Of a DNA stretch of 64,000 bases, positions 31,517 through 46,112 are shown in pieces. Under the pieces are notes generated by a model. It was given only the letters and a program-made list of their open reading frames with translations. It ran no database searches and was not told where the DNA came from. Origin of the DNA: Nitratireductor kimnyeongensis (GTDB taxonomy: Bacteria > Pseudomonadota > Alphaproteobacteria > Rhizobiales > Rhizobiaceae); the NCBI RefSeq assembly GCF_019891395.1, contig NZ_CP078143.1, forward strand, positions 3,051,001 through 3,115,000. Direction: 5' to 3'. Position 1 is the stretch's first letter, and every line of letters begins with the position of its first letter. Position numbers and translations under genes: made by a program.

Positions 31517-31996
31517 ATGGGCAAGATGGGTGCGGCCGATCTGATGGCCGTGCGTGCGCTTCGTGAGGGCGCGCCGCCTTCTTTTGAACTGCTGGCGCTG
31601 GCATGCGGCCGCTCGGAGCGGCTGTTGCGCAAGCGGGCGCAGGAAGAAAACTGGGGGTTGCCAGACGATCTGCCGCTGCCGCCATCGATTGAGCGGACGC
31701 GAAGCATGATCGGGATGCTCTTCAATCAACTCCAGCGGTTAATCGAGGATGCGGTTCATCGCGATCTTTTCGACAAGGGGCGGATCGAAGGCCTCAGTAC
31801 GCTGCTCAAGGTTTTGGAAAAGATGAACGAAATCGCGATCGAGCAGCAGCAGATGGATGGAAAGCACGCCCCCAGCGATGAAGAAATGGCCGCCGCACTC
31901 GACCGCATCGACGACCGGATCCGCTGCCTTGCTGCAGAGCTTGCAGAAAGGATGGGCAAGGCTGAACCTGGCACGGGAACTCGCATACGCCATTGA
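31517..31996 (+). CDS. GTA small terminase / DNA-packaging protein (gp1-like)
   Basis: A 159-residue, mostly helical protein at the first position of the cluster. An N-terminal helix-turn-helix-like part (SFELLALACGRSERLLRKRAQEENW) resembles small terminase DNA-binding domains. A coiled-coil-prone middle (VLEKMNEIAIEQQQMDG) could form the oligomeric ring. In Rhodobacter capsulatus GTA the same position holds the small terminase, which lacks sequence-specific pac recognition. Assignment rests on position and fold-like features. Its end overlaps the start of the large terminase gene. Confidence 0.75.
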   Translation: MGKMGAADLMAVRALREGAPPSFELLALACGRSERLLRKRAQEENWGLPDDLPLPPSIERTRSMIGMLFNQLQRLIEDAVHRDLFDKGRIEGLSTLLKVLEKMNEIAIEQQQMDGKHAPSDEEMAAALDRIDDRIRCLAAELAERMGKAEPGTGTRIRH

Positions 31997-33227
31997 GCGT
32001 GAATGGCTCGGGGTTGCGCGACTGGCGCAGTATCCGCTTGCGGCGATTTTTGACAGCTGGCTGGTGATGGGTGGTCGTGGCGCCGGCAAGACCAGGCTGG
32101 GCGCGGAATGGATTAATGCGCTGGTCCGGGGATTGCCCCCCTTCGCTGGCGGGATGCGCTATGGTCGGCTGGCCATGATCGGCGAAACGCTTTCCGACGC
32201 ACGTGAGGTGATGGTGGAGGGGCCTTCGGGAATACTGGCGGTCTCGCGGCGCGCTCGCCCACGTTTCGAGGCGAGCAGGCGGCGCATCGTGTGGGACAAT
32301 GGTGCGGTAGCGCAGCTTTTTTCTGCCGAGGATCCCGACAGTTTGCGCGGGCCGCAGTTCGATGCGGCCTGGTGCGACGAACTGGCCAAATGGAGGCAGG
32401 CCGACGCAACTTTCGACATGCTGCAGTTCGGCCTGCGGCTGGGAGAACGGCCAAGGCAGCTCTTGACCACGACACCGAGGCCGATCCCTCTGATCCGCAA
32501 GCTGATGGACGATCCGAATGTGACCGTGACCCATATGCGGACGGATGAAAACCGGGACAATCTGGCTCCAGGTTTCATAAGGGCCATCAGGCAACGCTAT
32601 GCGGGGACGCGGCTTGGCCGGCAGGAACTTGATGGCGAACTGATCGAGGACCGGCCCGATGCGCTTTGGACGCGCGCGATGCTGGAGAAAGCTGGTGCGA
32701 TTGGGCCGATGAGTGAACTCAAACGGATTGTCGTCGCAGTCGATCCCCCGGCGGCGTCCAGCCGCAGGTCGGATGCCTGCGGACTGGTGGCGGCGGGTGT
32801 CGATGCACAGGGCAACGGTGTGGTCCTGAGCGACGAGACGGTGAAGGGTGCGAAACCGCAGGAATGGGCGGCGCGCGCGGTGGGGCTTTATCATCGTCTG
32901 GAAGCCGATTGTCTTGTGGCGGAGGTAAACCAGGGTGGCGAGATGGTGGCGACCGTCATTGCCACGGTGGACGCCAGCGTGCCGGTGAAGGCGGTGCGGG
33001 CAACGCGCGGCAAGTGGCTGCGGGCGGAACCGGTAGCCGCTCTTTATGAGCAGGGACGGGTGCGTCATGCGCAACGCTTTCCCGAGCTTGAGGATGAAAT
33101 GTGCGATTTTGGCCTCGACGGTCTCTCGGGCGGACATTCGCCAGACCGGGTCGATGCGCTGGTCTGGGGCCTGAGCGAACTCATGCTTTCCAACCGGCGG
33201 GAGCCGCGCGTGCGCGCACTCGGTTGA
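31941..33227 (+). CDS. GTA large terminase (gp2-like ATPase/nuclease)
   Basis: About 428 residues forming the DNA-packaging motor. Walker A GGRGAGKT is at residues 44-51. A Walker B-like FDAAWCDELAKW follows, with the coupling-motif region LLTTTPRPIPLI. The C-terminal RNase H-like nuclease has acidic residues in VVAVDPPAAS, EVNQGGEM and PDRVDALVW. There is no well-placed ATG: TTG at 31941 lies inside the small terminase gene and is preferred, while the ATG at 31857 would add 28 residues that merely shadow the other gene. It cuts and packages DNA into capsids. Confidence 0.9.
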   Translation: MQKGWARLNLARELAYAIEREWLGVARLAQYPLAAIFDSWLVMGGRGAGKTRLGAEWINALVRGLPPFAGGMRYGRLAMIGETLSDAREVMVEGPSGILAVSRRARPRFEASRRRIVWDNGAVAQLFSAEDPDSLRGPQFDAAWCDELAKWRQADATFDMLQFGLRLGERPRQLLTTTPRPIPLIRKLMDDPNVTVTHMRTDENRDNLAPGFIRAIRQRYAGTRLGRQELDGELIEDRPDALWTRAMLEKAGAIGPMSELKRIVVAVDPPAASSRRSDACGLVAAGVDAQGNGVVLSDETVKGAKPQEWAARAVGLYHRLEADCLVAEVNQGGEMVATVIATVDASVPVKAVRATRGKWLRAEPVAALYEQGRVRHAQRFPELEDEMCDFGLDGLSGGHSPDRVDALVWGLSELMLSNRREPRVRALG

Positions 33228-33260
33228 CTCGGATAAAACAACGCAAATCGGGAAAATCAC

Positions 33261-34430
33261 ATGGCTTGGTATTGGCCCTGGGCGAAGCGTCCGGGAGGTG
33301 CTCGCGCACCGGTGGAAACCAAACAGATGCACGCGGGTGGTTTCGTGGCGCTGCACCGGGAGGGAGAAGCGCGCTTTACGCGCCGCGACTATGGCGCAAT
33401 GTCGCGCGAGGGGTTCATGTCCAACCCAATCGCTCATCGCGCCGTGCGGCTGGTAGCGGAGGCTGCGGCAGCGATCCCGTGGCTGCTTTATGAGGGCGCG
33501 CAGGAGCACGACGCGCATCCGATTCTGGACCTGATGGCACGGCCAAACCAGAGACAGGCTGGTAGCAGTTTCATGGAGACGCTTTACGGGCATCTGGTTC
33601 TGTCGGGCAATGCGTATCTTCGCATGCTGGAAACAGGCACGGGGACCCGCGAACTGCATCTCTTGCGGCCGGACCGGGTGTCGGTGGTGGCGGATGCGGG
33701 CGGCTGGCCTGTGGCGCTGGATTATCGCGAGGGCAAGGCGCGCGAGCACGTACCGCTGGAAGCGGGGGCGGCTCTGCAGCTTTCACTTTTTCACCCGCTC
33801 GACGATCATTATGGCTTTGCGCCGCTGGGCGCGGCGCTGATGGCGCTCGACACGCACAACCAGGCGGCGCGCTGGAACAAGGCGCTGCTCGACAATTCGG
33901 CGCGGCCCTCGGGCGCGCTGGTCTATGCGCCGAAGGAGGGTGGCAATCTTTCCGACGATCAGTTCGACCGGCTGAAGGTGGAGCTGGAACAGGGCTATGC
34001 GGGTGCCGCGCGCGCCGGGCGGCCCTTGCTTCTGGAAGGTGGGCTCGACTGGAAGGCGATGAGCCTTTCGCCGCGCGACATGGACTTCATGGCGGCGAAG
34101 AATGGCGCCGCCCGCGACATCGCGCTGGCGCTTGGCGTGCCTCCCATGCTGCTCGGCATCCCCGGTGACAACACCTATGCCAATTATCAGGAGGCGAACC
34201 GGGCCTTTTACCGACTGACCGTGCTGCCGCTTGTGGGGCGGGTGGCAAAGGAGTTTTCGGCCTGGCTCCATCCGGTCTTCGGGTCTGAGGTGAGACTTTG
34301 GTACGACGCTGACGGCATTGAGGGGCTGGCCGCCGAGCGTGAAGCGCTATGGAACCGGGTGGGAGCTGCCGACTTCCTGAGCGATGTGGAAAAACGTCAG
34401 GCGGTGGGTTATGGCCCCCGGGACGAATGA
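33261..34430 (+). CDS. GTA portal protein (gp3-like, HK97 family)
   Basis: A 389-residue HK97-family portal. Family features include SNPIAHRAVRLVAEAAAAIPW near residues 54-74, HLLRPDRVSVV, FAPLGAALMALDTHNQAARWNKALLDNSARPSG-type core sequence and LLGIPGDNTYANYQEANRAFYR. It forms the dodecameric ring at one capsid vertex through which DNA passes. It starts 33 bases after the terminase stop. Length matches RcGTA gp3. Confidence 0.95.
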   Translation: MAWYWPWAKRPGGARAPVETKQMHAGGFVALHREGEARFTRRDYGAMSREGFMSNPIAHRAVRLVAEAAAAIPWLLYEGAQEHDAHPILDLMARPNQRQAGSSFMETLYGHLVLSGNAYLRMLETGTGTRELHLLRPDRVSVVADAGGWPVALDYREGKAREHVPLEAGAALQLSLFHPLDDHYGFAPLGAALMALDTHNQAARWNKALLDNSARPSGALVYAPKEGGNLSDDQFDRLKVELEQGYAGAARAGRPLLLEGGLDWKAMSLSPRDMDFMAAKNGAARDIALALGVPPMLLGIPGDNTYANYQEANRAFYRLTVLPLVGRVAKEFSAWLHPVFGSEVRLWYDADGIEGLAAEREALWNRVGAADFLSDVEKRQAVGYGPRDE

Positions 34431-34483
34431 GAATGCCTCGACAGACTGACCATTGTCGCTGGAAACTCCAAGGAAACTGATCA

Positions 34484-34843
34484 ATGACCGACATCACCCA
34501 TGCGGGCTGGATATGGCTCGCAAAGGGGGCTGGCGCTGTGGCCGGCTCCGCCATCTCGCTTGCCTATATCCTGCCAAAGCATCGGCGCGACGCGGCGGTT
34601 CGCTTTGCGGTCGGTGTGGTGTGCGGCATGGTTTTCGGCGGGGCGACGGGGCTGAAACTCGCTGAAATTCTCGAACTTACCGGGCGGCTTGGGGCTGCGG
34701 AGACCATGCTCATGGGGGCGGCTGTGGCAAGCCTTTGCGCCTGGAGCGCCATCGGTCTGGCCCTGCGATATTTCCAGACGCGGCCGGTGGGGCCGTTGCC
34801 GCAAAGACGGTCCGAAAGGCTGGATGATCAGAAAGGACGCTAG
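34484..34843 (+). CDS. Small membrane protein within the GTA cluster (gp3.5 position, DUF6107-like)
   Basis: A 119-residue protein with three hydrophobic segments (about 9-29, 39-57, 72-95) and a basic C-terminal tail. AAGGA precedes the ATG, and it lies between the portal and protease genes. A small membrane protein in the same place is known from other GTA clusters; I recall DUF6107 as the label in rhizobia. Its role is unknown. Lysis control or membrane docking during assembly are guesses only. Confidence 0.75.
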   Translation: MTDITHAGWIWLAKGAGAVAGSAISLAYILPKHRRDAAVRFAVGVVCGMVFGGATGLKLAEILELTGRLGAAETMLMGAAVASLCAWSAIGLALRYFQTRPVGPLPQRRSERLDDQKGR

Positions 34844-34846
34844 ACC

Positions 34847-35530
34847 ATGCAGGCAAAGATCGCGCCGATACCCGATGAGCGCAAATATGCCGGGCTCGAC
34901 CTCGAGACCGTGAAGGCAGACGGGACGTTTTCTGGATATGCGAGCCTGTTCGGCAAAGTCGATCTCGGACGCGATGCGGTGGAGCGGGGCGCTTTTTCCC
35001 GCTCGCTCGAAAGGCGTGGCCCAGGCGGCGTACGCATGCTGTTCCAACACAATCCCAACCAGCCCATAGGAACCTGGGAGGAGCTGCGCGAGGACGCGCG
35101 CGGCCTCCTGGTGCGCGGGCGGCTGGCGCTTGGCGTCGCCAAGGCGCGGGAGGTCTGGGAGCTGATGCGCGATCGGGCGCTCGACGGGCTTTCCATCGGG
35201 TTTCGCACGGTTAAGGCCAAGACCGAAGCAAAGACCGGAGTGCGCCATATCGTGGAGGCGGATCTTTGGGAGATTTCCGTGGTCACCTTTCCCATGCTGC
35301 CGGAGGCGCGTGTGGATGAGGTGAAGACGGAGGGAAGGGACGCGCCGCTGCCCACGGCGCGCGAGTTCGAGCGTTGGCTGACGCGGGATGCCGGCCTGAC
35401 GCGGCGAGAGGCCCGACTGGTGATCGCCAAGGGGTTTTGCGCCTTGAGACGCGAGCGGGACGCCGTGCGGGGCATTGATGACGGGCTTGCTGCGCTGATC
35501 CGCAAAGCGGCCCGCATGTTCAACGATTGA
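34847..35530 (+). CDS. GTA prohead maturation protease (gp4-like, HK97 family)
   Basis: A 227-residue herpesvirus-fold serine protease that removes capsid scaffold regions. Family motifs are FSGYASLFGKVDLGRDAVERGAF, MLFQHNPNQPIGTW (catalytic His region, H68) and ALDGLSIGFRT (catalytic Ser region, S116). It begins three bases after the gene for the small membrane protein and 10 bases before the capsid gene, so it is made together with its substrate. Confidence 0.94.
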   Translation: MQAKIAPIPDERKYAGLDLETVKADGTFSGYASLFGKVDLGRDAVERGAFSRSLERRGPGGVRMLFQHNPNQPIGTWEELREDARGLLVRGRLALGVAKAREVWELMRDRALDGLSIGFRTVKAKTEAKTGVRHIVEADLWEISVVTFPMLPEARVDEVKTEGRDAPLPTAREFERWLTRDAGLTRREARLVIAKGFCALRRERDAVRGIDDGLAALIRKAARMFND

Positions 35531-35540
35531 GGATGAAGAC

Positions 35541-36797: not shown

Positions 36798-36822
36798 TCC
36801 TCCCTGTACGTCCATGCCGAGT

Positions 36823-36857
36823 ACGGCCCCGGAAGCATTTCCGGGGCCGTTTTCTTT
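36823..36857 (+). terminator. Strong intra-operon terminator after the GTA capsid gene
   Basis: ACGGCCCCGGAA and TTCCGGGGCCGT form a perfect 12-bp stem with a GCAT loop, followed by TTTTCTTT. It sits in the 75-base gap between capsid and connector genes. Partial read-through would give more head than tail mRNA. Confidence 0.85.
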
Positions 36858-36872
36858 GAACGGAGTTTCCGC

Positions 36873-37442
36873 ATGACGCTATTTCGCACGGTCGGCCCAT
36901 TGGTCGAACCGGTAACCCTTGCCGAGGCGAAGGCGCATCTTCGGCTTGAGCAGGTGCGTGAAGACGCGCTGATTGAAGGGCTGATCCGCGCCGCGCGCGA
37001 GGAGGTGGAGAAGATCACCGGACAGGCACTGATCGAACAGTCCTGGCGTCTGACGCTGGACGACTGGCCAACAACCAACGTGCTTCTTTTGAACCGGACC
37101 CCGGTGCGCGAAGTGCTATCGGTGACGGTGTTCGACGCTGATGGAGCCGCCTCGATCGTCGATCCATCCACCTATCGGCTGGATGCACATTCCCAGCCGG
37201 CTCGACTTCTGTTGGAATCGAGGCCGCTTCCGGGCCAAAAGCTGAACGGCATCGAGATCGATTTCAGGGCCGGGTACGGAGAAGCGGGGACGGATGTACC
37301 GGACCTTCTGCGGCGCGCCATTCTTATACTTGTGGGCCATTGGTTCGAGTTCCGGGCCGCGTTTGAGGCCAATGATCAGCCCGTATCGATCCCGGCCGGG
37401 TTTCTGCGTCTTGTCAACAGCTATCGGAAGCCGAGGCTGTAA
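36873..37442 (+). CDS. GTA head-tail connector (gp6-like adaptor)
   Basis: A 189-residue helical protein of the phage gp6-like head-tail connector family (PVTLAEAKAHLRLE at the N-terminus, LLRRAILILVGHWFEFRAA near the end). It attaches below the portal ring. GGAG precedes the ATG. The stop overlaps the next start by one base. Confidence 0.92.
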   Translation: MTLFRTVGPLVEPVTLAEAKAHLRLEQVREDALIEGLIRAAREEVEKITGQALIEQSWRLTLDDWPTTNVLLLNRTPVREVLSVTVFDADGAASIVDPSTYRLDAHSQPARLLLESRPLPGQKLNGIEIDFRAGYGEAGTDVPDLLRRAILILVGHWFEFRAAFEANDQPVSIPAGFLRLVNSYRKPRL

Positions 37443-37777
37443 TGCGTATCCAGTTCATCGACCCTGGCGCATTCCGCGCGGAACTCAGCCTGCAGAAAGC
37501 ATCGTTCGTTTCGGACGACGCGGGCGGGCACACCGAGACCTGGAGCGAGATCGCGACGATATTCGGTTTCATTGAGCCAGTGAGGGCCGCGGCGCCTTTC
37601 GGAGCGGGACAACGCCATGAACGGGTGACCCATCGCATCACGCTGCGGTTTCGTACCGGTGTGACCGGCGGGATGCGGATCGTGCGGGGAACGCGGAGTT
37701 TCTCGATCCTGACGGCCCATGATCCCGATGAGACAGGTCGCTACCTGGTCTGTCTCTGTGAGGAGGAACAGACATGA
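37442..37777 (+). CDS. GTA head-tail adaptor / stopper (gp7-like)
   Basis: A 111-residue beta-rich protein of the SPP1 gp16-type head-tail adaptor family, with RHERVTHRITLRFRTGV and FSILTAHDPDETGRYLVCLCEE typical of GTA gp7. It seals the connector before tail attachment. It overlaps the preceding gene by one base (TAATG) and the following small gene by four (ATGA). Confidence 0.9.
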   Translation: MRIQFIDPGAFRAELSLQKASFVSDDAGGHTETWSEIATIFGFIEPVRAAAPFGAGQRHERVTHRITLRFRTGVTGGMRIVRGTRSFSILTAHDPDETGRYLVCLCEEEQT

Positions 37778-37938
37778 AGATGAGCCTGCGACTGACCGGC
37801 GACGGGCTGACCCGGGCATTGCGACGGCTATCACACAAGGTGGCCGAGGTGGGAGAGGCCGCAAGGCGAGCAGAACGCAAAGCGCCGAAATCGGACGTGT
37901 TAAAGCAGGAGCGTGACGATGCTCGCCGCCGCGTTTGA
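37774..37938 (+). CDS. Small GTA protein of 54 residues between gp7 and gp8
   Basis: A short coding region: MKMSLRLTGDGLTRALRRLS, then SHKVAEVGEAARRAERKAPK and a basic end. It starts with an ATGA overlap on gp7, has AGGAGG just upstream, and runs 20 bases past the ATG of the next gene. The N-terminus recalls the first helix of HK97 gp10-type tail-completion proteins, but the rest of that fold is missing. It could be a degraded or minimal tail-joining protein. Tight coupling argues that it is translated. Confidence 0.6.
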   Translation: MKMSLRLTGDGLTRALRRLSHKVAEVGEAARRAERKAPKSDVLKQERDDARRRV

Positions 37939-38326
37939 ACTGCAGAAGGCTGTGTTCGGGACGCTGGCGGCAGATACAGGGCTGACTGGCGCTCTGGGCG
38001 GTGAAAAATTCTACGATCTGGCACCTGCCCGCACGGCCTACCCCTATGCCACATTTGGACCGGCCAGCACGCATGACTGGAGCACGGACACCGAGCAAGG
38101 CAGCGAGCACTTCTTCACGATCAATGTCTGGGCCAACGGCAAGGGGCGACGCGAAGCGCTGCAACTGATGGATCGCATCGATCAGGCGCTGATGACCACT
38201 CCGCTTTCAGTCGCCGGACATCACCTGGTCAACCTGCGCCGTGAGGGCAGCGAAATCCACTTCGACGAAGACCTCAACGCCTATCACGGTTTGATGCGCT
38301 TTCGCGCAATGATCGAGCCCGTTTGA
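37919..38326 (+). CDS. GTA tail terminator (gp8-like, DUF3168)
   Basis: A 135-residue DUF3168 protein (LAAAFELQKAVFGTLAADTGL at the start; YPYATFGPAST and FFTINVWANGKGRREALQLMDRI within). It caps the tail tube and joins it to the head connector. AGGAG is seven bases before the ATG at 37919, so this start is preferred to the GTG at 37913. It overlaps the 54-residue small gene by 20 bases. Confidence 0.9.
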   Translation: MLAAAFELQKAVFGTLAADTGLTGALGGEKFYDLAPARTAYPYATFGPASTHDWSTDTEQGSEHFFTINVWANGKGRREALQLMDRIDQALMTTPLSVAGHHLVNLRREGSEIHFDEDLNAYHGLMRFRAMIEPV

Positions 38327-38354
38327 GACATCAACATTTTCCTGGAGGACAAGC

Positions 38355-38771
38355 ATGGTTGCCAAGAAGGGCAAGGACCTGCTCCTGAAGCTCGACACGA
38401 GCGGGGCGGGAACATTCACCACCGTTGCAGGGCTGCGTGCCAAGCGCCTTGCCTTCAACAGTGAGACGGTGGACGTGACGAATGCGGATTCGGCGGGCCG
38501 ATGGCGGGAACTGCTTGCCGGCAGCGGCGTGCAGCGGGCCGCGATCAGCGGTTCCGGAATTTTCAAGGATAGCGCATCGGACGCCGCAATTCGCAGCCGG
38601 TTCTTTTCCAGCGAGATAGCCGACTGGCAGTTAACGATACCGGATTTCGGCATCGTGTCAGGACCGTTTCAGATCACCGCGCTGGAGTATGGCGGCAATC
38701 ACGATGGTGAGGTGACCTTTGAGATCGCCCTGGAGTCTGCCGGGGCCGTGAATTTTGCGGAGGTCCCATGA
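38355..38771 (+). CDS. GTA major tail tube protein (gp9-like, TP901-1 family)
   Basis: A 138-residue tail tube protein with the TP901-1 family signature: KGKDLLLKLDTSGAGTFTTVAGLRAKRLAFN, then VDVTNADSAGRWRELLAGSGVQRAAISGSGIFKDSASD-like sequence. Hexamers stack to form the tail. GGAGG precedes the ATG, and the end overlaps the gp10-like gene by four bases. Confidence 0.93.
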   Translation: MVAKKGKDLLLKLDTSGAGTFTTVAGLRAKRLAFNSETVDVTNADSAGRWRELLAGSGVQRAAISGSGIFKDSASDAAIRSRFFSSEIADWQLTIPDFGIVSGPFQITALEYGGNHDGEVTFEIALESAGAVNFAEVP

Positions 38772-39106
38772 TCAGTGTCAACTGCAGGCGCGGCGAGGTG
38801 GCTGCGCGGATCGACGGCAAAGACTACACGCTTTGCCTGACATTGGGTGCCTTGGCCGAACTCGAAGACGCATTCGCTGCAGAGGATCTGGGCGAACTTG
38901 CGAAGCGGTTTTCCAGCGGGCGCCTTTCTGCCCGCGACATGCAGCGCGTGATCGGGGCTGGTCTTCGCGGCGGCGGCCACGCCGTCAGCCAGGAGGATGT
39001 GCAGGCCATGCGCTGCGAAGAGGGCTTGGCCGGGCTCGCGCGGGTTGTGAGTGCACTTTTGGTGGCGACGTTCGGCGGAGCGGAGGAACCGGCTCCAAAC
39101 CCTTGA
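38768..39106 (+). CDS. GTA gp10-like protein (gene transfer agent family, tail assembly)
   Basis: A 112-residue protein of the GTA-gp10/DUF3356 type (GEVAARIDGKDYTLCLTLGALAELEDAF, then VIGAGLRGGGHAVSQEDVQAM). By position it is the first of the two tail-assembly chaperone-type proteins that precede the tape measure. It is coupled by a four-base overlap to the tail tube gene and by a TTGA overlap to the next gene. Confidence 0.9.
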   Translation: MISVNCRRGEVAARIDGKDYTLCLTLGALAELEDAFAAEDLGELAKRFSSGRLSARDMQRVIGAGLRGGGHAVSQEDVQAMRCEEGLAGLARVVSALLVATFGGAEEPAPNP

Positions 39107-39351
39107 ATGCCGCATCAGCCCAAGCGCGGCCTTTCCCCTGGAATGAGGTGATGGGCGTTGCGTTTGGGGTGCTGCGGCTTCCACCGGGTGCGTTCTGGGG
39201 CATGACACCGCGCGAGCTGAATTGTGCGCTGGAAGCGCTGCATGGCGCCGCTCCGGGTGTCCCGGCGCGCAGCGATTTCGATCAGCTCATGCAACGCTTT
39301 CCAGACTTGGACGTCGGACAACAGGTGGAGGCAATTCCTTGGAAGACGTGA
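39103..39351 (+). CDS. GTA tail assembly chaperone (gp10.1-like, rcc01693 family)
   Basis: An 82-residue protein beginning with a TTG overlapping the gp10 stop (TTGA). Its sequence FPWNEVMGVAFGVLRLPPGAFW followed by MTPRELNCALEAL is diagnostic for the small rcc01693-like protein of GTA clusters. With gp10 it should chaperone the tape measure protein. No separate strong ribosome site is seen, so translation relies on coupling. Confidence 0.87.
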   Translation: MNAASAQARPFPWNEVMGVAFGVLRLPPGAFWGMTPRELNCALEALHGAAPGVPARSDFDQLMQRFPDLDVGQQVEAIPWKT

Positions 39352-39890
39352 CCTTTGAAATTCGCGCGGACACAAAGCCGTTTGCCGAAGCGCTGAGCGA
39401 ACTGGAGACACTGGCGGACGGCTTTGGCCGGCAGATGACCGGGGCGCTGAAAAGTGCGGTGGTAAGTGGCAAATCGTTCGAGGATGTGCTGCGCAATATC
39501 GGCATGAACCTGGCGAGTATGGCGCTTTCGCAGGCGCTGCAGCCTTTGGCGGCGCTGGGATCGTCGCTTTTTTCGAGTGTTGTCGGGGGGATCCTGCCCT
39601 TCGCCAAGGGGGGCGTGGTCCCGTTTGCCGATGGCGGCGTCGTTTCCTCGCCCACCTATTTCCCGATGGGGGGCAGGGTCGGCTTGATGGGCGAGGCCGG
39701 CGCAGAAGCGATCCTGCCTCTGCAGCGCGGTTCCGACGGTCGGCTGGGTGTTGCCGCAGGAAGCGGTTCGTCGGCTGCAAACATCGTTTTCAACATTTCG
39801 ACACCGGACGCGGCATCGTTCCGCAAGTCGCAGGCCCAGATCACAGGCATGCTGGCACGCGCTGTATCGCGTGGCGCCAGGACCTTTTGA
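39339..39890 (+). CDS. GTA tape measure protein (gp11-like)
   Basis: A 183-residue protein. The start is TTG at 39339 with GGAGG seven bases before it, inside the end of the preceding gene. It has a helical N-terminal part (EIRADTKPFAEALSELETLADGFG), a hydrophobic centre (LSQALQPLAALGSSLFSSVVGGILPFAKGG) and a C-terminal motif MGEAGAEAILPLQR found at the end of many phage tape measure proteins. It is very short for this function, implying a short tail; RcGTA gp11 is also short. Confidence 0.88.
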   Translation: MEDVTFEIRADTKPFAEALSELETLADGFGRQMTGALKSAVVSGKSFEDVLRNIGMNLASMALSQALQPLAALGSSLFSSVVGGILPFAKGGVVPFADGGVVSSPTYFPMGGRVGLMGEAGAEAILPLQRGSDGRLGVAAGSGSSAANIVFNISTPDAASFRKSQAQITGMLARAVSRGARTF

Positions 39891-39908
39891 GGAAGGACAA
39901 CAACCGGC

Positions 39909-40550
39909 ATGAACGCCTTTCACGATGTGCGGTTTCCCGTGGCCATCTCCTTTGGGGCCACTGGAGGGCCAGAAAGACGCAACGAAATCGTGGAGCTGAC
40001 ATCGGGTCGCGAGAAGCGCAATGCGAGACATGCGCTAGCGCGGCGGTATTACGACGTCGGCACGGGATTGCGCTCGCTCGACGATGTGCACGAAGTGATC
40101 GCATTTTTCGAGGCGCGACGCGGTTCGCTTCATGGGTTTCGGTTCCGCGACCCATTCGACATGAAATCCTGTGCACCTTCCGGGACGCCGACTGCAAGTG
40201 ACCAGGCGATTGGCGTGGGCGATGGCGTCGCCACGCGCTTTGCGTTGGCAAAGACATATGGGGAGGCGCCCGATGCGGTTCTGCGCCCGATCACCCGTCC
40301 TGTCGCGGACACGGTTCTGGTTGGCGTCGACGGTGTGCTTCAGCAGACTTCGCTCGACTTTGCCATCGACAGCGCCACGGGAGAGGTGGTTTTCGAACCT
40401 CAGGCGGTGCCCGCGGAAGGTGCTGTGGTCACGGCCGGATTCGAATTCGACGTGCCGGTCCGCTTCGACATCGAAAGACTGTCCGTGAGCCTCAGTGCTT
40501 TCAGGGCGGGGCAAATTCCCACGATCCCGCTGGTGGAGATACTTGCATGA
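39909..40550 (+). CDS. GTA distal tail protein (gp12-like, DUF2460)
   Basis: A 213-residue DUF2460 protein (FHDVRFPVAISFGATGGPERRNEIVEL at the start; FFEARRGSLHGFRFRDPFDMKS; PVRFDIERLSVSLSAFRAGQIP near the end). It forms the ring at the end of the tail tube. GGAAGG-type ribosome site; four-base overlap with the next gene. Confidence 0.94.
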   Translation: MNAFHDVRFPVAISFGATGGPERRNEIVELTSGREKRNARHALARRYYDVGTGLRSLDDVHEVIAFFEARRGSLHGFRFRDPFDMKSCAPSGTPTASDQAIGVGDGVATRFALAKTYGEAPDAVLRPITRPVADTVLVGVDGVLQQTSLDFAIDSATGEVVFEPQAVPAEGAVVTAGFEFDVPVRFDIERLSVSLSAFRAGQIPTIPLVEILA

Positions 40551-41437
40551 CGTCGACAGAAGAAACGCTGGAAGCCCACATTCAAGGGGAGGTCACAAGC
40601 CTTTGCCATTGTTGGCGGTTGAGCCGAGCCGACGGGGTCATCCTCGGTTTTACCGATCACGACAGGCAATTGAATTGCGACGGTGCGAGTTTTCATCCGT
40701 ACACGGGTTTTACCGCAAGTGAGGCCAGATCATCATTCGGACTATCGGTGGATACGGTCGACGTGGCTGGAGCGCTTTCCGCCTCGGAGATCCGAGAAGA
40801 AGACATTCTCTCAGGACTCTATGACGGTGCAAGGGTCGAGACGTTGCTCGTGAACTGGCGGGACCCATCGATGTTTCAAAGGCTGCGTGTGGCAGTGATC
40901 GGCAAGGTGACGCGGCAGGATGGACGTTTCGTCGCCGAACTGGAAAGCGAGGCATGGACACTTGATCAGCCGAGTGGACGAACCGTTGGACGAGGTTGCG
41001 ATGCCGAACTGGGTGACCAGCGGTGCGGAGTGGACCTGACCGATGACCGTTTTGCAGGCAGCGGAATTTTCCTTCGCGCTGAAGAAGCGAACGTTCTGGT
41101 GGTTGATGGCCTTGATGCGTTTGCGGCTGGCTGGTTTGACAATGGCGTTCTGACCTGGGTCAGCGGAGCGCAATCCGGTCGCAGGGAACGGGTCATTGCG
41201 CATGTGAACTCTGGAAGCGAGACCCGGCTCTCACTCTGGCGCGAAGCACCGCTGAGGGGAGAGGCGGGGGATGGGTTCATAGTCGTCGCAGGGTGTAACA
41301 AGCAATTTCCCACCTGCAAGGGGAAGTTCCAGAATGCCCCGAATTTTCGTGGATTCCCGCATCTGCCCGGCGATGACGCGGCCTATAGCTATGTACGGGG
41401 CGAGGGGGTCTTCGACGGCAAGGCTTTGGTGCAGTGA
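40547..41437 (+). CDS. GTA baseplate hub protein (gp13-like, DUF2163)
   Basis: A 296-residue DUF2163 protein. Two cysteine pairs, C-x8-C (CDAELGDQRC) and C-x6-C (CNKQFPTC), surround the C-terminal third. In the Rhodobacter GTA, the corresponding hub protein is reported to hold an iron-sulfur cluster through conserved cysteines, so the same is likely here. FLRAEEANVLVVDG, WFDNGVLTWVSGAQSGRR and FRGFPHLPGDDA are typical of the family. It is coupled to both neighbours by four-base overlaps. Confidence 0.93.
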   Translation: MTSTEETLEAHIQGEVTSLCHCWRLSRADGVILGFTDHDRQLNCDGASFHPYTGFTASEARSSFGLSVDTVDVAGALSASEIREEDILSGLYDGARVETLLVNWRDPSMFQRLRVAVIGKVTRQDGRFVAELESEAWTLDQPSGRTVGRGCDAELGDQRCGVDLTDDRFAGSGIFLRAEEANVLVVDGLDAFAAGWFDNGVLTWVSGAQSGRRERVIAHVNSGSETRLSLWREAPLRGEAGDGFIVVAGCNKQFPTCKGKFQNAPNFRGFPHLPGDDAAYSYVRGEGVFDGKALVQ

Positions 41438-41910
41438 CCCAGAGTGACCATCCAACCGAAGGGGCATTGCGGGAAGCCATTCTGTATGAAGCCCTGAGCT
41501 GGGTCGGTACCCCCTACCGGCATCAGGCGAGCCGCAAAGGCGTGGGTTGCGATTGCCTTGGACTGTTGCGCGGTGTGTGGCGAAGCGTGCTGGGCTGCGA
41601 GCCAGAAGAGCCGGGAGTCTATAGCGCTGATTGGGCGGAGTGTTGCGGCGAAGAGCGTCTTCTTTCCGCGGCCAGGCGTCATTGCATTGAACGGGCGCAT
41701 GCGGACCCGCAGCCAGCCGATATCGTTCTGTTTCGCTGGCGCACAAATCTGCCAGCCAAGCATGTGGGCATCATGACGGCGACGGATGCTTTCGTGCACG
41801 CCTATGAGGGGGCTGCAGTCGTGGTCTCACCGCTTGTACCGCAATGGCGCAGGCGGATTGCAGGTCTGTTCGCCTTTCCAATGCCCCTATCCTCGATATC
41901 CCGAAAGTAG
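41434..41910 (+). CDS. GTA NlpC/P60 cell-wall peptidase (gp14-like)
   Basis: A 158-residue cysteine peptidase that opens peptidoglycan for DNA entry. The catalytic C41 is in GCDCLGLLRGVW, and the catalytic His is H110 in PAKHVGIM. The GTG start overlaps the hub gene stop (GTGA). It is a tail-tip component in this family, not a free endolysin. It ends six bases before the baseplate gene. Confidence 0.94.
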   Translation: MTQSDHPTEGALREAILYEALSWVGTPYRHQASRKGVGCDCLGLLRGVWRSVLGCEPEEPGVYSADWAECCGEERLLSAARRHCIERAHADPQPADIVLFRWRTNLPAKHVGIMTATDAFVHAYEGAAVVVSPLVPQWRRRIAGLFAFPMPLSSISRK

Positions 41911-41916
41911 AAACAT

Positions 41917-44900
41917 ATGGCTACACTCGTCTTGCAGGCTGCCGGTGCGTTCCTCGGTGGCTTTCTCGGGCCTGTCGGCGTGACGCTGGGAACCGCTGCG
42001 GGCGCCCTGGCCGGCTATGTGGTCGATAGGGCTCTTTTCGGAGGGGCACAGCACTACGAAGGCCCCCGGCTTTCCGCAGCAAGACCATTTTCCGGGGAGG
42101 AAGGCTCTCCCTTGCCCAGACTTTATGGAACCGTGCGCACAGGCGGCACGCTGATCTGGGCAACGCGTTTCGAAGAAACCAGCACCACGGAGCGCCAGGG
42201 CGGCAAGGGTGGGCCGAAAGCAACCACGTACTCCTATTTCGCCAACGCCGCCTTTGCGATCTGCGATGGGGAGATTGCCGGCGTTCGTCGCATCTGGGCT
42301 GACGGCGAGGAAGTGGATCAAAGCAGGGTCAATATCCGGGTTTACCGCGGCACTGAGGACCAAATGCCCGATCCGCTGATCGAGGCAAAGCAAGGTGCCG
42401 GCAATGCGCCGGCCTATCGCGGAACTGCCTATGTGGTGATCGACCGCATGCCAATCGATGACTACGGACGACGAATCCCTCAGCTTCAGTTTGAAGTGCT
42501 CCGGCCGGTTGCCACGTTGAATGCGAAGGTTGGTTCCGTGGCGCTTATTCCGGGCTCCACCGAGTTTGGCCTTTCTCCGAAAGCGGTCGAAATTCGCAAC
42601 AGTCCGGGAAAACACACGGTCGTCAACCGCAATACGCGGGTCGCCGAAAGCGATTTCGAAGCCTCGCTGGATGAGTTGCAGGCACTGATGCCGAACCTCA
42701 AGAGCATATCGCTTGTCGTGTCCTGGTTCGGAACGGATCTAAGGGCAGGGCACTGCCAGATCAAACCTATGGTGAGTTCGCACGGGAGCAGCACGTTTCC
42801 ACTGGACTGGGAGGAAATCTGGGAGCAGATGGGGGTGCCGCCGGCATTTCTCGATCACTTCTCGGGCAGCGGGCGAAACGAGAAATGGAGCGTTTCGAGC
42901 CTGGAGCGCGAGGACGCCCAAGTCGTTTCCTACACCGAGCAGGGGGCTGCTTATGGAGGGACGCCGTCCGACCATACGGTGGTGGCTGCGATCAGGGCGA
43001 TCAGGGCGCGGGGGCTAAAGGTCTGGCTCTACCCGTTCATTATGATGGATGTGCCCGCCGGCAACGATCTTCCCAGTCCGGACGGTGGGATGCATCAGCC
43101 CGTTTACCCATGGCGGGGGCGGATTACATGTTACCCGGCACCGGGGCGTCCTGGGACTGCGGACAAAACCGCGGCGGCTGATGCGCAGGTCGCCGCTCTG
43201 CTGGGAGATGCCGACGCGGCAGCTTACATACTTGGAGAGGATACGGTGGATTTCATCGGTGATCCCGATGAATGGGGTTATCGACGTTTTTTGCTTCACT
43301 ATGCCCATCTGGCTGCCATGGCTGGCGGCGTGGACGGATTTCTCATCGGTTCGGAACTGCGCGGACTAACCCAGTTGCGTGATCAGAACGGCCAGTACCC
43401 TTTCGTTGAGGGGTTGAGGGGCCTGGCCAATGAAGTGCGCGCAATTGTGGGAGCGGGAGCCACGATTACCTATGGCGCCGACTGGACCGAATATTTTGGG
43501 CATCAGCCTGCCGACGGAAGCGGTGACGTGTTTTTTCACCTTGACCCTTTGTGGGCGGACGATGCCATCGATGCGGTGGGTATCGACAATTACATGCCGC
43601 TCTCGGACTGGCGCGATGAAGATCAAGCGGGCGGCAATCCGGATGGCTTCTATGGACCCTACGACCCGCTGGGGCTCAGGGAGAGCATTGCCGCGGGCGA
43701 GGGCTTTGACTGGTTTTATGCCAGCGAGGCAGATCGGCGTGCCCGGCTCCGTACGCCCATAACAGACGGCGCTTACGGAAAACCCTGGGTGTTCCGATAC
43801 AAAGATCTTGTTGCATGGTGGTCGAACCCGCATTTTGACCGGCTCGGCGGGGTTGAGCAGGCTCTTCCAACCGCCTGGATTCCAGCGTCAAAACCACTCA
43901 TCTTTACCGAGCTCGGTTGCCCTGCGGTCGACAAGGGTCCCAACCAGCCGAATGTGTTTCCGGATGCGAAATCCTCGGAGAATGCGTTGCCGCATTTCTC
44001 CAATGGCGGACGCTCGGATCTGGCCCAGCATCGGCTGCTCGAGGCGCATTATGACTATTGGGCCGAAACGGGCCCGCACAACCCCGTTTCACCGGTTTAC
44101 CAAGCCCCCATGGTCGATCCGCAAATGTTCAGCCTTTGGGCCTGGGATGCGCGTCCTTTCCCGGCGTTTCCGGTTCGAACGGGTGTTTGGGGAGACGGTG
44201 GCAATTGGGCGACCGGGCATTGGCTGAATGGTCGTGCAAGCAGCGCAACCGCCGGTGATCTGATTAACGCCATATTGGACGATCACGGACTGGAGAGAGG
44301 CGAAACAGCGAACGCAGACGGTTGGGTTTCCGGATATGTGATCGCCAATCCGACCACTGCTCGGGCGGCGCTGGAACCGATCCTCGATCTGTTTGGCATT
44401 GGTGCTCATGAGCAGGAAGGGAAACTCAGTTTCCGTTCGCTCGCTTCCGCTCTGGGCGATACGCGAGAGATCGCGGATTTGGCCATGCAAGATGACGGTG
44501 CGGCGGTGGAGCGGATGCGGGAGCCCGATCATGCCCTGCCTGCCGAATTGCATCTGGATTTCCGTGACGAGATGCGCGATCACCAGGCTGCCACGAAACG
44601 TGTGGCGCATATCGGTGCGAAGGGACGAAGAACCCATTTTCTCAGTTTCCCGGGCGTGTTGACTGCGCCCGAAGCTGAAATCCAGGCGAAGGAATGGCTT
44701 TTTCGCCATTGGGCTGCACGGGAGGAAGCCCAGTTCGTCCTGCCGCCTTCGGAGTATGGCATAGAGCCAGGCATGATCGTTCATCTCCCCGAGGTTCTGG
44801 GAGCGGGTCGATATCTCGTCACTGAGCTGGAAGACGGCCTGTTGCGTCGGATCAAGGCGCGGCGTGTGCTTGCGAACCCGTCGCCGGCGGTGGGCGCGGC

Positions 44901-45879
44901 GCCGTCACCACCAGCCGACAATTCCGAACAAGAGGAAAGTGCTGCATTTGCCTTGATGCTCGATCTGCCGTGGCAGCCCGGCACACGCGAAAGTCACGAG
45001 CAGTTCAGGCTCGCGGTTCATTCCGCCCCGTGGAACAGTCATGTCGCATTTGCCTCGCCTGAGGAAAGCGGCTTCGAAATGAGGAGCCGGATTGAAAAGC
45101 GTGCCACCATCGGGTTCCTCAAACAAGGACTCGGGAGCGGCGTCTTGGGGCGGCAGGATAGGAGCCGGACGATCACAGTGGAACTATTGTCCGGCGCATT
45201 GGAGAGTGTTTCGCCGGCTCAAATCCTCAATGGTGCAAACGCGGCTGCCGTATTTAGTGAGGCGGGTGTCTGGGAGGTCTTGCAGTTCACCACAGCTGAA
45301 GAGGTTGAACCGTCTGTGTGGCAACTCGGCGGCCTGTTGCGGGGGCAACTGGGAACCGATGACGCCATGAAAGCAGGCGCACCAGCCGGAGCCGGATTTG
45401 TCTTGCTTGACCAGGCTGTGCAGGCAGCGGGACTGCGGGCTGCTGAAATCGGTCTTGAACGCAATTGGCGTATCGGACCAGCAGGGGCAGCTCTCGGCAG
45501 CACGCGCTTCTTCCAGACACGGGTTGCGGGCGGGATGCGTGCGCTCGTGCCGTTGTCTCCGGTCCACCTCAGAGCGCGGAAAACCGCCACGGAGGCGGTG
45601 GTTCTGTCCTGGGTGAGACGAGGGCGTGTTGATGCTGATAACTGGCTGGGTGAGGACGTACCCCTGGGCGAGACGAATGAACGCTATCGCATCGACGTGG
45701 CAGGGAGCAGCGGGACTGTCGTGCGCAGCGCCACCTCCACGACGGCAAGCTGGACTTACACATCGGAAATGAAGGCCGAGGATTTTGCAGAGGCGTCGCC
45801 GAACCTCCGTTTCACGATCCGCCAGCTCAGCGAACGGGTCGGCCCAGGATTGCCCGCAACGATTATCTTCACCGGTTGA
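41917..45879 (+). CDS. GTA baseplate megaprotein (gp15-like, glycoside hydrolase/phage tail)
   Basis: A 1320-residue protein, the largest of the cluster. It has a hydrophobic, glycine-rich N-terminus (LQAAGAFLGGFLGPVGVTLG), a hub-like part up to about 300, and a TIM-barrel glycoside-hydrolase-like domain (about 330-760, with DGFLIGSELRGL and FTELGCPAVDKGPNQPN). Phage-tail_3-like and fibronectin-like domains follow to the end. RcGTA gp15 (the megatron) closes the tail tip and carries the same order. Whether the TIM barrel is enzymatically active cannot be judged by eye. It is the last structural gene here. Confidence 0.94.
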   Translation: MATLVLQAAGAFLGGFLGPVGVTLGTAAGALAGYVVDRALFGGAQHYEGPRLSAARPFSGEEGSPLPRLYGTVRTGGTLIWATRFEETSTTERQGGKGGPKATTYSYFANAAFAICDGEIAGVRRIWADGEEVDQSRVNIRVYRGTEDQMPDPLIEAKQGAGNAPAYRGTAYVVIDRMPIDDYGRRIPQLQFEVLRPVATLNAKVGSVALIPGSTEFGLSPKAVEIRNSPGKHTVVNRNTRVAESDFEASLDELQALMPNLKSISLVVSWFGTDLRAGHCQIKPMVSSHGSSTFPLDWEEIWEQMGVPPAFLDHFSGSGRNEKWSVSSLEREDAQVVSYTEQGAAYGGTPSDHTVVAAIRAIRARGLKVWLYPFIMMDVPAGNDLPSPDGGMHQPVYPWRGRITCYPAPGRPGTADKTAAADAQVAALLGDADAAAYILGEDTVDFIGDPDEWGYRRFLLHYAHLAAMAGGVDGFLIGSELRGLTQLRDQNGQYPFVEGLRGLANEVRAIVGAGATITYGADWTEYFGHQPADGSGDVFFHLDPLWADDAIDAVGIDNYMPLSDWRDEDQAGGNPDGFYGPYDPLGLRESIAAGEGFDWFYASEADRRARLRTPITDGAYGKPWVFRYKDLVAWWSNPHFDRLGGVEQALPTAWIPASKPLIFTELGCPAVDKGPNQPNVFPDAKSSENALPHFSNGGRSDLAQHRLLEAHYDYWAETGPHNPVSPVYQAPMVDPQMFSLWAWDARPFPAFPVRTGVWGDGGNWATGHWLNGRASSATAGDLINAILDDHGLERGETANADGWVSGYVIANPTTARAALEPILDLFGIGAHEQEGKLSFRSLASALGDTREIADLAMQDDGAAVERMREPDHALPAELHLDFRDEMRDHQAATKRVAHIGAKGRRTHFLSFPGVLTAPEAEIQAKEWLFRHWAAREEAQFVLPPSEYGIEPGMIVHLPEVLGAGRYLVTELEDGLLRRIKARRVLANPSPAVGAAPSPPADNSEQEESAAFALMLDLPWQPGTRESHEQFRLAVHSAPWNSHVAFASPEESGFEMRSRIEKRATIGFLKQGLGSGVLGRQDRSRTITVELLSGALESVSPAQILNGANAAAVFSEAGVWEVLQFTTAEEVEPSVWQLGGLLRGQLGTDDAMKAGAPAGAGFVLLDQAVQAAGLRAAEIGLERNWRIGPAGAALGSTRFFQTRVAGGMRALVPLSPVHLRARKTATEAVVLSWVRRGRVDADNWLGEDVPLGETNERYRIDVAGSSGTVVRSATSTTASWTYTSEMKAEDFAEASPNLRFTIRQLSERVGPGLPATIIFTG

Positions 45880-45905
45880 GTGTGCAATGAAAGAAAGGAA
45901 GAACG

Positions 45906-46112
45906 ATGAGTGACAGCAAGCCCTGGTACCTCTCCCGGACGATCTGGGCGTCCATGGTGACGATTGCAGCTGCGGCTGCGAGCATGCTTGGATATCCTTT
46001 GGGGGATATCGACAGTTCCGCCGTGTCGGACGAACTCTTGCGGGTAATCACCGCAATCTCAGGATTGATTGCCATCTTCGGCAGAGTTCAGGCCCGCAGC
46101 CTTATCCGCTGA
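45906..46112 (+). CDS. Small holin-like membrane protein after the GTA genes
   Basis: A 68-residue protein with two predicted transmembrane segments (about 12-30 and 46-63), a short charged N-terminus (SDSKPWYLSR) and an Arg-rich end (GRVQARSLIR). AAGGAAG lies eight bases before the ATG, 26 bases after the baseplate gene. The form fits small phage holins that release particles by opening the inner membrane, but no endolysin is adjacent. The holin role is inferred from topology and position. Confidence 0.65.
   Translation: MSDSKPWYLSRTIWASMVTIAAAAASMLGYPLGDIDSSAVSDELLRVITAISGLIAIFGRVQARSLIR

What the first reader, a model, noticed from the sequence alone, without database searches (positions are those of the whole stretch)
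31517..46112. Complete Rhodobacter-type gene transfer agent head-tail cluster in a rhizobial-like chromosome
Nineteen co-directional genes run in canonical RcGTA order from small terminase to megaprotein gp15, with overlaps or short gaps. There is no integrase, repressor, replication gene or attachment site. All key active-site motifs (terminase P-loop, protease His/Ser, NlpC Cys/His) are intact, suggesting selection for function rather than decay. A live GTA would make this organism a donor of random chromosomal DNA.
Basis: partly seen in the sequence, partly recalled or inferred. Interest (0 to 1): 0.85.

Follow-up and report, generated by a model that had tools for sequence, protein, structure and literature searches.

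The report
Intact rhizobial gene transfer agent cluster
A rhizobial bacterium carries a complete, selectively maintained set of genes for a gene transfer agent (a tamed virus that packages pieces of its host's DNA), which is a known kind of system, but some of its relatives show repeated in-frame deletions that start at one almost fixed point in the DNA-packaging gene, and that is unexpected.

Summary
Window 31517-46112 holds 19 co-directional genes in RcGTA order. Portal, capsid, gp8 and gp15 have RcGTA chains as best matches among solved structures. The 17 genes tested are under purifying selection within Nitratireductor. This is an intact member of a known kind; particle production is untested. 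Its gafZ-type half co-occurs with the GTA megatron domain in 64 of 80 genomes.

Two findings go beyond filing. (1) A terminator-like hairpin lies between capsid gene g5 and g6 (36823-36850); in 30 chosen loci all 10 pairs show compensatory changes. (2) In some relatives the cluster is deleted from one left end, within about 2 bases at the terL Walker B codons (window 32379), and joints nearly always keep the frame (16 of 17). The fused alleles arose several times. Two serine-integrase elements sit in the same codons, though their crossover seems 3-5 bases away. The cause of the fixed breakpoint is unknown.

The parts
20729..21154 (+). GafY-type activator candidate (DnaA C-terminal helix-turn-helix)
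   Evidence: PF08299 E 1.9e-15; dN/dS 0.05 and 0.07 against two relatives
21156..21980 (+). GafZ-type activator / anti-terminator candidate (DUF6456)
   Evidence: PF20057 E 1.9e-45; the same family rings in the Caulobacter control
31517..31996 (+). g1, small terminase candidate
   Evidence: position, plus helical AlphaFold model with pLDDT 74, pTM 0.35; no family or relevant PDB match; fold search inconclusive
31857..33227 (+). g2, large terminase (terL); true start probably a few codons later
   Evidence: PF03237 E 3e-32, PF17289 E 2e-22
32376..32381 (+). terL Walker B codons Asp174-Glu175 (GAC GAA); in relatives the recurrent deletion starts at the first or second base of the Glu codon (window 32379-32380)
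   Evidence: intact here
33261..34430 (+). g3, portal
   Evidence: RcGTA portal 6tba E 4e-111
34484..34843 (+). g3.5 (DUF6107)
   Evidence: PF19602 E 1.7e-31
34847..35530 (+). g4, prohead protease
   Evidence: TIGR01543 E 8e-33; PF04586
35541..36797 (+). g5, major capsid protein
   Evidence: TIGR01554 E 1.7e-121; RcGTA capsid 6tb9 E 6e-95
36823..36850 (+). terminator-like hairpin with U-tract between g5 and g6
36873..37442 (+). g6, head-tail connector
   Evidence: TIGR02215 E 1e-63
37442..37777 (+). g7, head closure
   Evidence: TIGR01563 E 2e-13; RcGTA stopper 6tba E 0.0013
37774..37938 (+). small ORF between g7 and g8 (54 aa)
   Evidence: no family
37913..38326 (+). g8, tail terminator
   Evidence: PF11367; RcGTA Rcc01690 E 2e-6
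38355..38771 (+). g9, major tail protein
   Evidence: TIGR02126 E 2e-35
38768..39106 (+). g10
   Evidence: PF11836 GTA-gp10 E 1.5e-32
39103..39351 (+). g10.1, tail assembly chaperone
   Evidence: PF09550 E 9e-19
39342..39890 (+). g11, short tape measure (conserved part; listed ORF starts at 39222)
   Evidence: NF058675 RcGTA_tape 168 bits, under its cut-off of 220; PHROG tape E 1e-15; start:
39909..40550 (+). g12, distal tail protein
   Evidence: TIGR02217 (Rcc01695 family) E 8e-85
40547..41437 (+). g13, baseplate hub
   Evidence: TIGR02218 E 1e-85
41434..41910 (+). g14, NlpC/P60 cell wall peptidase
   Evidence: TIGR02219 E 1.4e-58
41917..45879 (+). g15, baseplate megatron
   Evidence: NF048004 1680 bits, cut-off 800; RcGTA 6tba E 3e-281
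43909..43911 (+). gp15 Glu665 codon; the commonest right end of the deletions seen in relatives
   Evidence: intact here
45906..46112 (+). 68-aa protein with two hydrophobic stretches, holin candidate
   Evidence: PHROG holin 34682 E 4e-4, weak; hydropathy; dN/dS 0.04-0.18 in the three unsaturated comparisons

Best explanation
The cluster is an intact RcGTA-type (type I) gene transfer agent head-tail operon, kept by selection. Likely working: under stress the gafYZ-type pair 9.5 kb upstream is switched on. GafY-type protein helps RNA polymerase start in front of g1. GafZ-type protein rides with it and lets part of it pass the hairpin terminator after the capsid gene, so that capsid is made in excess over connector and tail. 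The head fills with a few kb of host DNA, the tail assembles, and cells lyse. Shown here: gene set, order, homology, purifying selection, a conserved terminator-like hairpin, co-occurrence of a gafZ-type gene with the cluster. Inferred from work on Caulobacter and Rhodobacter: activation, anti-termination, packaging, lysis. Not shown: expression, termination, particles, gene transfer.
For: Families and order. RcGTA chains are the best PDB match for portal, capsid, gp8 and gp15, and the nearest but weak one for gp7. Unsaturated dN/dS 0.02-0.45 in the 17 GTA genes tested. DUF6456 in 68 of 80 genomes and GTA_TIM in 67 of 80, the set being this genome and 79 relatives: both in 64, neither in 9, one alone in 3 and 4, Fisher p 6e-7. 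Both on one contig in 40 of the 64; of these 32 lie within 40 kb and 39 within 100 kb, median 25 kb. Terminator pattern between g5 and g6 in 35 of 78 loci, against 0-6 at each of the other 16 gene joints. 10 of 10 pairs with compensatory changes in 30 chosen loci and 0 of 500 shuffles as high. Model R1 hits the g5-g6 gap in 22 of 54 sources not used to build it, at E up to 0.05; elsewhere in 1.14 Mb it hits one place, besides the window's own copy and its reverse strand.
Against: g1 has no sequence or fold match to a small terminase worth trusting (small terminases appear in the fold list only at E 1.0 and above). g11 is under its family cut-off. GTA_holin_3TM was not found, but that search rang in no control either. 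Head-spike genes were not identified. Many of the other gene joints have little or no gap, so the fair comparisons are g8-g9 (6 of 62), g10-g11 (4 of 74), g7-g8 (0 of 70) and the end of the cluster (2 of 29). By energy alone the control fails: g10-g11 (64 of 74) and g7-g8 (44 of 58) also have strong hairpins, in partly coding sequence. 32 of 54 sources gave no model hit in the gap. Relatedness of genomes inflates the linkage and hairpin counts. GTA_TIM as a marker also counts deleted clusters such as G042 and possible phages. Low dS in g1-g11 against G001 (0.03-0.30; flanking genes 0.43-0.88) could be exchange or codon selection, which blurs dN/dS; four gene comparisons were saturated in dS.
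Confidence: 0.85

Rival explanations
1. Decaying prophage remnant: an old defective prophage still in one piece by chance.
For: Some relatives do show decay: deletions, frame changes in gp15, inserted elements.
Against: Genes open and unsaturated dN/dS 0.02-0.45 over dS up to more than 2; same chromosomal place between a penicillin-binding gene and a two-component pair in many genera; gafZ-type gene co-occurs.
Confidence: 0.07
2. Living prophage that packages its own genome.
For: The capsid has phage-labelled matches at 64-66% identity.
Against: No phage replication, repressor or integrase gene in the scanned flanks; the 103-kb 'phage' record behind the 64% match is, in the stretch opened, rhizobial chromosome with the same neighbours (the other, 18-kb record was not opened); conserved chromosomal site.
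Confidence: 0.03
3. On the recurrent deletions in relatives: they are driven by serine-integrase elements that use terL Walker B as attachment site; aberrant recombination from that site to look-alike sites removes the cluster.
For: Two elements with different integrases (50% identical) sit in terL at these codons. gp15 and the 68-aa gene have a TGG codon at the same offset from the joint in several, not all, joints (read by eye).
Against: In G274 the two ends of the element place the crossover at CT, 3-5 bases right of the deletion point (read by eye, with the empty site taken from other genomes); the two joints to the 68-aa gene share no dinucleotide with terL at the crossover, judged from congeners. 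Both insertions are in one genus.
Confidence: 0.25
4. On the recurrent deletions: the TerL-megatron chimera is itself useful and selection picks this in-frame joint.
For: 16 of 17 clean joints in frame (chance about 3e-7 if independent); dN/dS 0.14 in the gp15 part between two fused alleles; Walker A invariant in 32 aligned fusions (chosen for carrying the TerL domain).
Against: In the same pair the TerL part has dN/dS 0.46, and the pair may not share one event. AlphaFold gives pLDDT 25-39 for residues 171-200, just after the joint (32 rows); G487 carries the same joint with a later frame change; fused alleles sit at tips of the tree beside intact relatives; joints to the 68-aa gene share only the TerL half.
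Confidence: 0.2
5. On the recurrent deletions: one old deletion allele spread between species by recombination.
For: Mosaic similarity near the joint in genus g118.
Against: Genus-private residues right at the joint match intact congeners (G042 with G235, G180 with G088 and G243); tree forces 8 changes for 8 fused rows; different right ends share the same left end.
Confidence: 0.1

Closest known systems
RcGTA of Rhodobacter capsulatus (rcc01682-01698 head-tail cluster)
   Same: gene set and order, HK97-type head, short tape, TIM-barrel megatron, no phage replication genes in the scanned flanks
   Different: activator split into two genes and near the cluster; 68-aa downstream holin candidate; hairpin after g5; RcGTA lysis and head-spike genes not found by the few searches made. 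RcGTA features are partly recalled, partly from passages (PMC10883770; PMC11150451)
CcGTA of Caulobacter crescentus with GafY, GafZ, IHF and terGTA (PMC11150451, PMC9632790, passages)
   Same: separate GafY and GafZ type genes in tandem; a terminator inside the cluster
   Different: Caulobacter terminator lies after the first gene as three 150-bp repeats; here a simple hairpin after the capsid gene, and gafYZ near the cluster
Helper-embedded satellites (HE-PICIs) integrated in prophage terminase and capsid genes (PMC10111431, passages)
   Same: integrase elements in relatives that sit inside terminase and capsid genes
   Different: here serine integrases and a gene transfer agent as target; neither term occurs in that paper's main text

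Membership tests
RcGTA-type gene transfer agent | head-tail cluster genes in RcGTA order | tested here: met
   the order of RcGTA itself is recalled
RcGTA-type gene transfer agent | proteins closest to RcGTA among solved structures | tested here: met
   portal, capsid, gp8, gp15, gp7 weakly; g1 and g11 gave no RcGTA match; the other 12 were not run against the PDB
RcGTA-type gene transfer agent | no integrase, repressor or replication genes beside it | tested here: met
   for the ORFs scanned; 1-18 kb and 52.8-61.7 kb not scanned; a Ros/MucR-type host regulator at 19663-20100
RcGTA-type gene transfer agent | small terminase g1 | tested here: inconclusive
   conserved helical protein in the right place, no trustworthy match
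RcGTA-type gene transfer agent | GafA or GafYZ activator in the genome | tested here: met
   by domain only
RcGTA-type gene transfer agent | purifying selection on structural genes | tested here: met
   17 of 19 genes
RcGTA-type gene transfer agent | dispersed accessory genes (tail fibre, head spikes, lysis) | tested here: inconclusive
   one DUF2793 protein at G000:C1:3018255-3019466; GTA_holin_3TM not found and control silent; weak holin match of the 68-aa protein
RcGTA-type gene transfer agent | particles packaging random host DNA, less than the cluster length | not testable with these tools
   needs bench work
intrinsic transcription terminator | GC-rich hairpin followed by a U-tract, pairs kept by compensatory change | tested here: met
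   termination itself not tested

The most novel reading that the evidence does not exclude
Gene transfer agent clusters of alphaproteobacteria are removed again and again by deletions whose left end is fixed within about 2 bases at the terL Walker B codons (after TGG NNN GAY G). Right ends lie in gp15 or the downstream membrane gene and nearly always keep the reading frame. That would mean a specific breaking process aimed at the terminase gene plus selection on the reading frame of the remnant: a genomic record of repeated silencing of gene transfer agents. The same codons are the landing site of serine-integrase elements in one genus, so the terminase gene may be a target in a conflict between mobile elements and gene transfer agents.
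Probability: 0.5. Interest if true: 0.72.

Novelty: new member of a known kind. Interest (0 to 1): 0.48.

Why it matters
The window gives a clean, complete GTA with its likely activator pair nearby, in a group where, as far as I recall, no RcGTA-type particle has been demonstrated. The conserved hairpin after the capsid gene gives a simple, testable reason why a GafZ-type anti-terminator is kept and how head and tail dosage could be set. The recurrent deletions bear on a long-standing question: whether gene transfer agents are kept by selection and how they are lost. A nearly fixed, in-frame loss path seen in many genera lets one ask which cells gain from losing the agent, and what cuts there.

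Tried and rejected
Rfam found nothing in the window at gathering scores. GTA_holin_3TM found nothing in this genome, and nothing in the controls, so absence is not shown. The g1 fold search gave no useful match. The search for the terL integrase in viral contigs found no relative. Long direct repeats like those of the Caulobacter terGTA were not found between 31250 and 34500.

I first read the fused terL::gp15 ORFs as products of microhomology. Rejected as a full explanation: the shared run is 3-6 bases and some joints seem to share none. I then read them as direct products of a serine integrase. Weakened: the crossover in G274 seems to lie a few bases away. I then read them as a selected chimera. 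Weakened by the model and by G487. I also counted G322 as in frame by ORF length until one search showed that it is not, so the count is 16 of 17. The 17 joints are those I recognised by eye. G039 and G044 are rearranged rather than clean joints, and G037 is a frame change within gp15; these three were run but left out of the 17.

Selection effects: fused proteins were found with fused queries, and so were G355 and G487. The terL survey is free of that bias, but one search lists only its best matches, and I chose 26 weak-scoring genomes plus intact G007 from its table, seven of them already known as fused. Of those 27, 10 have the joint at Asp174/Glu175: G013, G017, G042, G126, G204, G180, G280, G250, G130, G277. 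Among the rest, G168, G179, G213, G270, G272 and G305 were not looked at further, and G255 and G258 have nearly full but distant genes.
Full report
What is there. The window is G000:C1:3051001-3115000 of a 4.05-Mb genome in 2 contigs. The nearest named records by capsid are Nitratireductor (99% and 96% identity). From 31517 to 46112 run 19 plus-strand genes. Curated families name portal, protease, capsid, connector, closure, tail, distal tail, hub, NlpC peptidase and the GTA 'megatron' gp15, terL, g3.5, g8 and g10, and the tail chaperone g10.1. The tape g11 is under its family cut-off but matches phage tape families. In sequence searches of solved structures the best hits for portal, capsid, gp8 and gp15 are chains of the RcGTA particle. 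gp7 hits RcGTA only weakly (E 0.0013). g1 hits nothing relevant, and g11 hits a phage tape protein. The other 12 genes were not run against the PDB.

Is it maintained? Seventeen of the 19 genes were compared with up to four Nitratireductor relatives (G001, G003, L004, L005; L004 lacks g1 and g2 and has only 33 residues of g3). Where dS is not saturated, dN/dS lies between 0.02 and 0.45, mostly below 0.25; four comparisons were saturated (g12 and the 68-aa gene against L005, g13 and g14 against G003) and are left out. The only in-frame stop is at residue 30 of the listed g11 ORF, in 2 of 4 relatives, so its true start is later. Synonymous distance to G001 is lower in g1-g11 (0.03-0.30) than in flanking genes (0.43-0.88), which may reflect exchange of the cluster or codon selection. 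I did not separate the two.

Regulators. At 20729-21154 and 21156-21980 lie a DnaA-C helix-turn-helix protein and a DUF6456 protein, adjacent and in the same direction. In Caulobacter GafY and GafZ are two adjacent genes similar to the two halves of GafA, and GafZ is an anti-terminator (PMC11150451 and PMC9632790, passages). DUF6456 rings in the Caulobacter control genome. In this genome and 79 relatives DUF6456 is found in 68 of 80 and GTA_TIM in 67 of 80: both in 64, neither in 9, one alone in 3 and 4, Fisher p 6e-7. On one contig in 40 of 64; of these 32 within 40 kb, 39 within 100 kb. Relatedness is not corrected for, the other 24 pairs lie on different contigs, and GafY was not searched for in these genomes.

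Terminator-like hairpin after the capsid gene. Between g5 and g6 the window holds a 12-pair hairpin followed by TTTCTTT (36823-36850). In the 80 capsid loci plus the window, the stem-plus-T pattern is found in 35 of 78 g5-g6 gaps, and in 0 to 6 of 25-81 at each of the other 16 joints. Many of those joints have little gap; the ones with real gaps give 6 of 62 (g8-g9), 4 of 74 (g10-g11), 0 of 70 (g7-g8) and 2 of 29 (after the 68-aa gene). An energy scan finds a hairpin of -15 kcal/mol or better in 75 of 77 g5-g6 gaps, but also in 64 of 74 g10-g11 and 44 of 58 g7-g8 gaps, which hold small genes, and in 12 of 56 g8-g9 gaps, so energy alone says little. On 30 of the 75 loci, picked by me partly for clear hairpins, all 10 pairs have compensatory changes and 95.3% of cells pair. 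None of 500 shuffles reaches the observed values, and slid structures pair at 38-55%. A covariance model from those 30 finds the g5-g6 gap in 22 of 54 sources not used to build it (some are close relatives of those used). In 1.14 Mb the only other hits up to E 0.05 are the window's own copy, its reverse strand, and one place in L079 at E 0.046. In the library searched I found no report of this hairpin (listing; PMC11150451 passages describe a terminator after the first gene).

What relatives show. In the first 80 genomes four had only the end of the TIM domain in an ORF of 756-845 aa (G005, G013, G017, G042), three of them with gafZ 10-13 kb away on the same contig. Their DNA shows deletions: in G042, G013 and G017 terL residues 1 to about 176 run in frame into gp15 from about residue 665; in G005 (the window's own genus) g1 residue 72 runs into gp15 residue 661. 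Two searches of 5.8 billion proteins, each listing the best 120, gave many more. Of 62 listed proteins with a P-loop printed, 54 have the joint W-x-D-E then x-G-[C/A/G]; 2 join at VFFDPKS, 2 at DFGY, 2 at A-x-IDF; P0034 joins two codons earlier (read by eye); P0158 was not examined. Some of these are the same genomes (P0121 is G013; others probably match G017, G204, G280). Names include Mesorhizobium sp. WSM2239, Aminobacter anthyllidis, Ruegeria, Hyphococcus and Hasllibacter. In a draw of 385 class genomes one more fusion of the common kind turned up (G487, with a later frame change), and one g3::gp15 joint (G355).

Independence. A tree of the gp15 C-terminal part with 98 rows needs 8 changes for 8 fused rows, and well-supported branches force 8 (quick method, one of the 8 is the g1 fusion of G005, and G180 is a long branch). 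Private residues at the joint match intact congeners: 'AIDLG' in G042 and intact G235; 'GAPA' and 'DGGA' in G180 and intact G088, G243. In genus g118 two fused and one intact allele are mosaic near the joint, so exchange also happens.

Left end. A terL survey not biased towards fusions (297 genomes; 27 re-searched) found partial genes. Ten have the joint at Asp174/Glu175: seven joined to gp15 as above, G250 joined to gp15 near residue 191, and G130 and G277 (two genera) joined to the 68-aa membrane gene. At DNA level the terL part ends after GACG or GACGA (GATG in G130). Other partial genes end elsewhere (G141 216, G292 225, G287 265, G145 about 310), and several were not examined. Of 17 clean joints 16 keep the frame and one (G322) does not (chance 2.7e-7 if independent).

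Cause. In G217 and G274 elements of 11.5 and 7 kb sit in terL at the same codons, each ending in a large serine recombinase (Resolvase, Recombinase and zinc ribbon domains). Both genomes belong to one genus; their integrases are 50% identical. In G274 the two ends leave CT as the likely crossover, read by eye with the empty site taken from other genomes, so the deletion point is 3-5 bases off. Of the 30 integrase loci given (68 of 297 genomes matched), 4 have GTA genes beside them: the two in terL, and G097 and G332 in or at the end of the capsid gene near codon 397, with elements of about 39 and 38 kb. Satellites that target terminase and capsid genes of prophages are in print (PMC10111431, passages). 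I found no paper on serine integrases in GTA genes or on the recurrent fusion in searches (listings) of an open-licence library. An AlphaFold model of the fused protein (32 rows) is well ordered in the gp15 end but has pLDDT 25-39 for residues 171-200, just after the joint, and G487 has a fused gene with a later frame change. Between fused G204 and G126 dN/dS is 0.14 in the gp15 part but 0.46 in the TerL part, and they may not share one event. So a useful chimera is not well supported. The fixed left end and the in-frame rule remain unexplained.

Verdict. The given finding is correct and its filing is ordinary: a new member of the RcGTA-type family. The activator pair, the conserved hairpin and the recurrent deletions in relatives are what a specialist would look at twice.

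Noticed in passing
GenBank MW462191.1 (L101, 43.7 kb of 103 kb): Filed as 'Bacteriophage sp.', but the opened stretch has the same chromosomal neighbours as the window (penicillin-binding protein, PhoP-type pair, ccm genes, glnE): a rhizobial chromosome contig with a GTA cluster. MW091529.1 looks similar by hits but was not opened.
   Followed up: partly
L047, record titled Bacillus subtilis SK6B4 contig00009: Carries a rhizobial GTA capsid and gp15 that groups with Pseudochrobactrum in the gp15 tree: contamination or mislabelled record.
   Followed up: no
L191 (G217) and L192 (G274): Serine-integrase elements in terL each carry a flagellin-like gene of 677 or 696 aa.
   Followed up: no
G097:C1 about 1985690-2024660; G332:C9 about 4374-42480: Elements of 38-39 kb with a serine integrase next to or inside the capsid gene near codon 397; in G332 the gene is almost whole on one side. 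Content not read.
   Followed up: partly
window g1-g11 against G001: Synonymous distance in the front of the cluster is lower than in flanking genes (0.03-0.30 against 0.43-0.88): exchange between species or codon selection.
   Followed up: no
L106, L149, L150, L151 (G037, G321, G118, G190): gp15 is split by frame changes or a stop around residues 495-705 in largely complete clusters: sequencing error, decay or a split gene.
   Followed up: no
window 19663-20100: A Ros/MucR-type regulator lies just upstream of the gafYZ-type pair.
   Followed up: no
G000:C1:3018255-3019466 (L100:10255-11466): DUF2793 protein about 63 kb upstream of the cluster, similar to a chain that the PDB entry with a megatron protein names 'Ribonuclease III' (8gtc_S), which looks like a label error.
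   Followed up: partly
G002, G036, G044: These genomes have two or three full GTA_TIM matches at different places, so more than one GTA-like or phage megatron.
   Followed up: no
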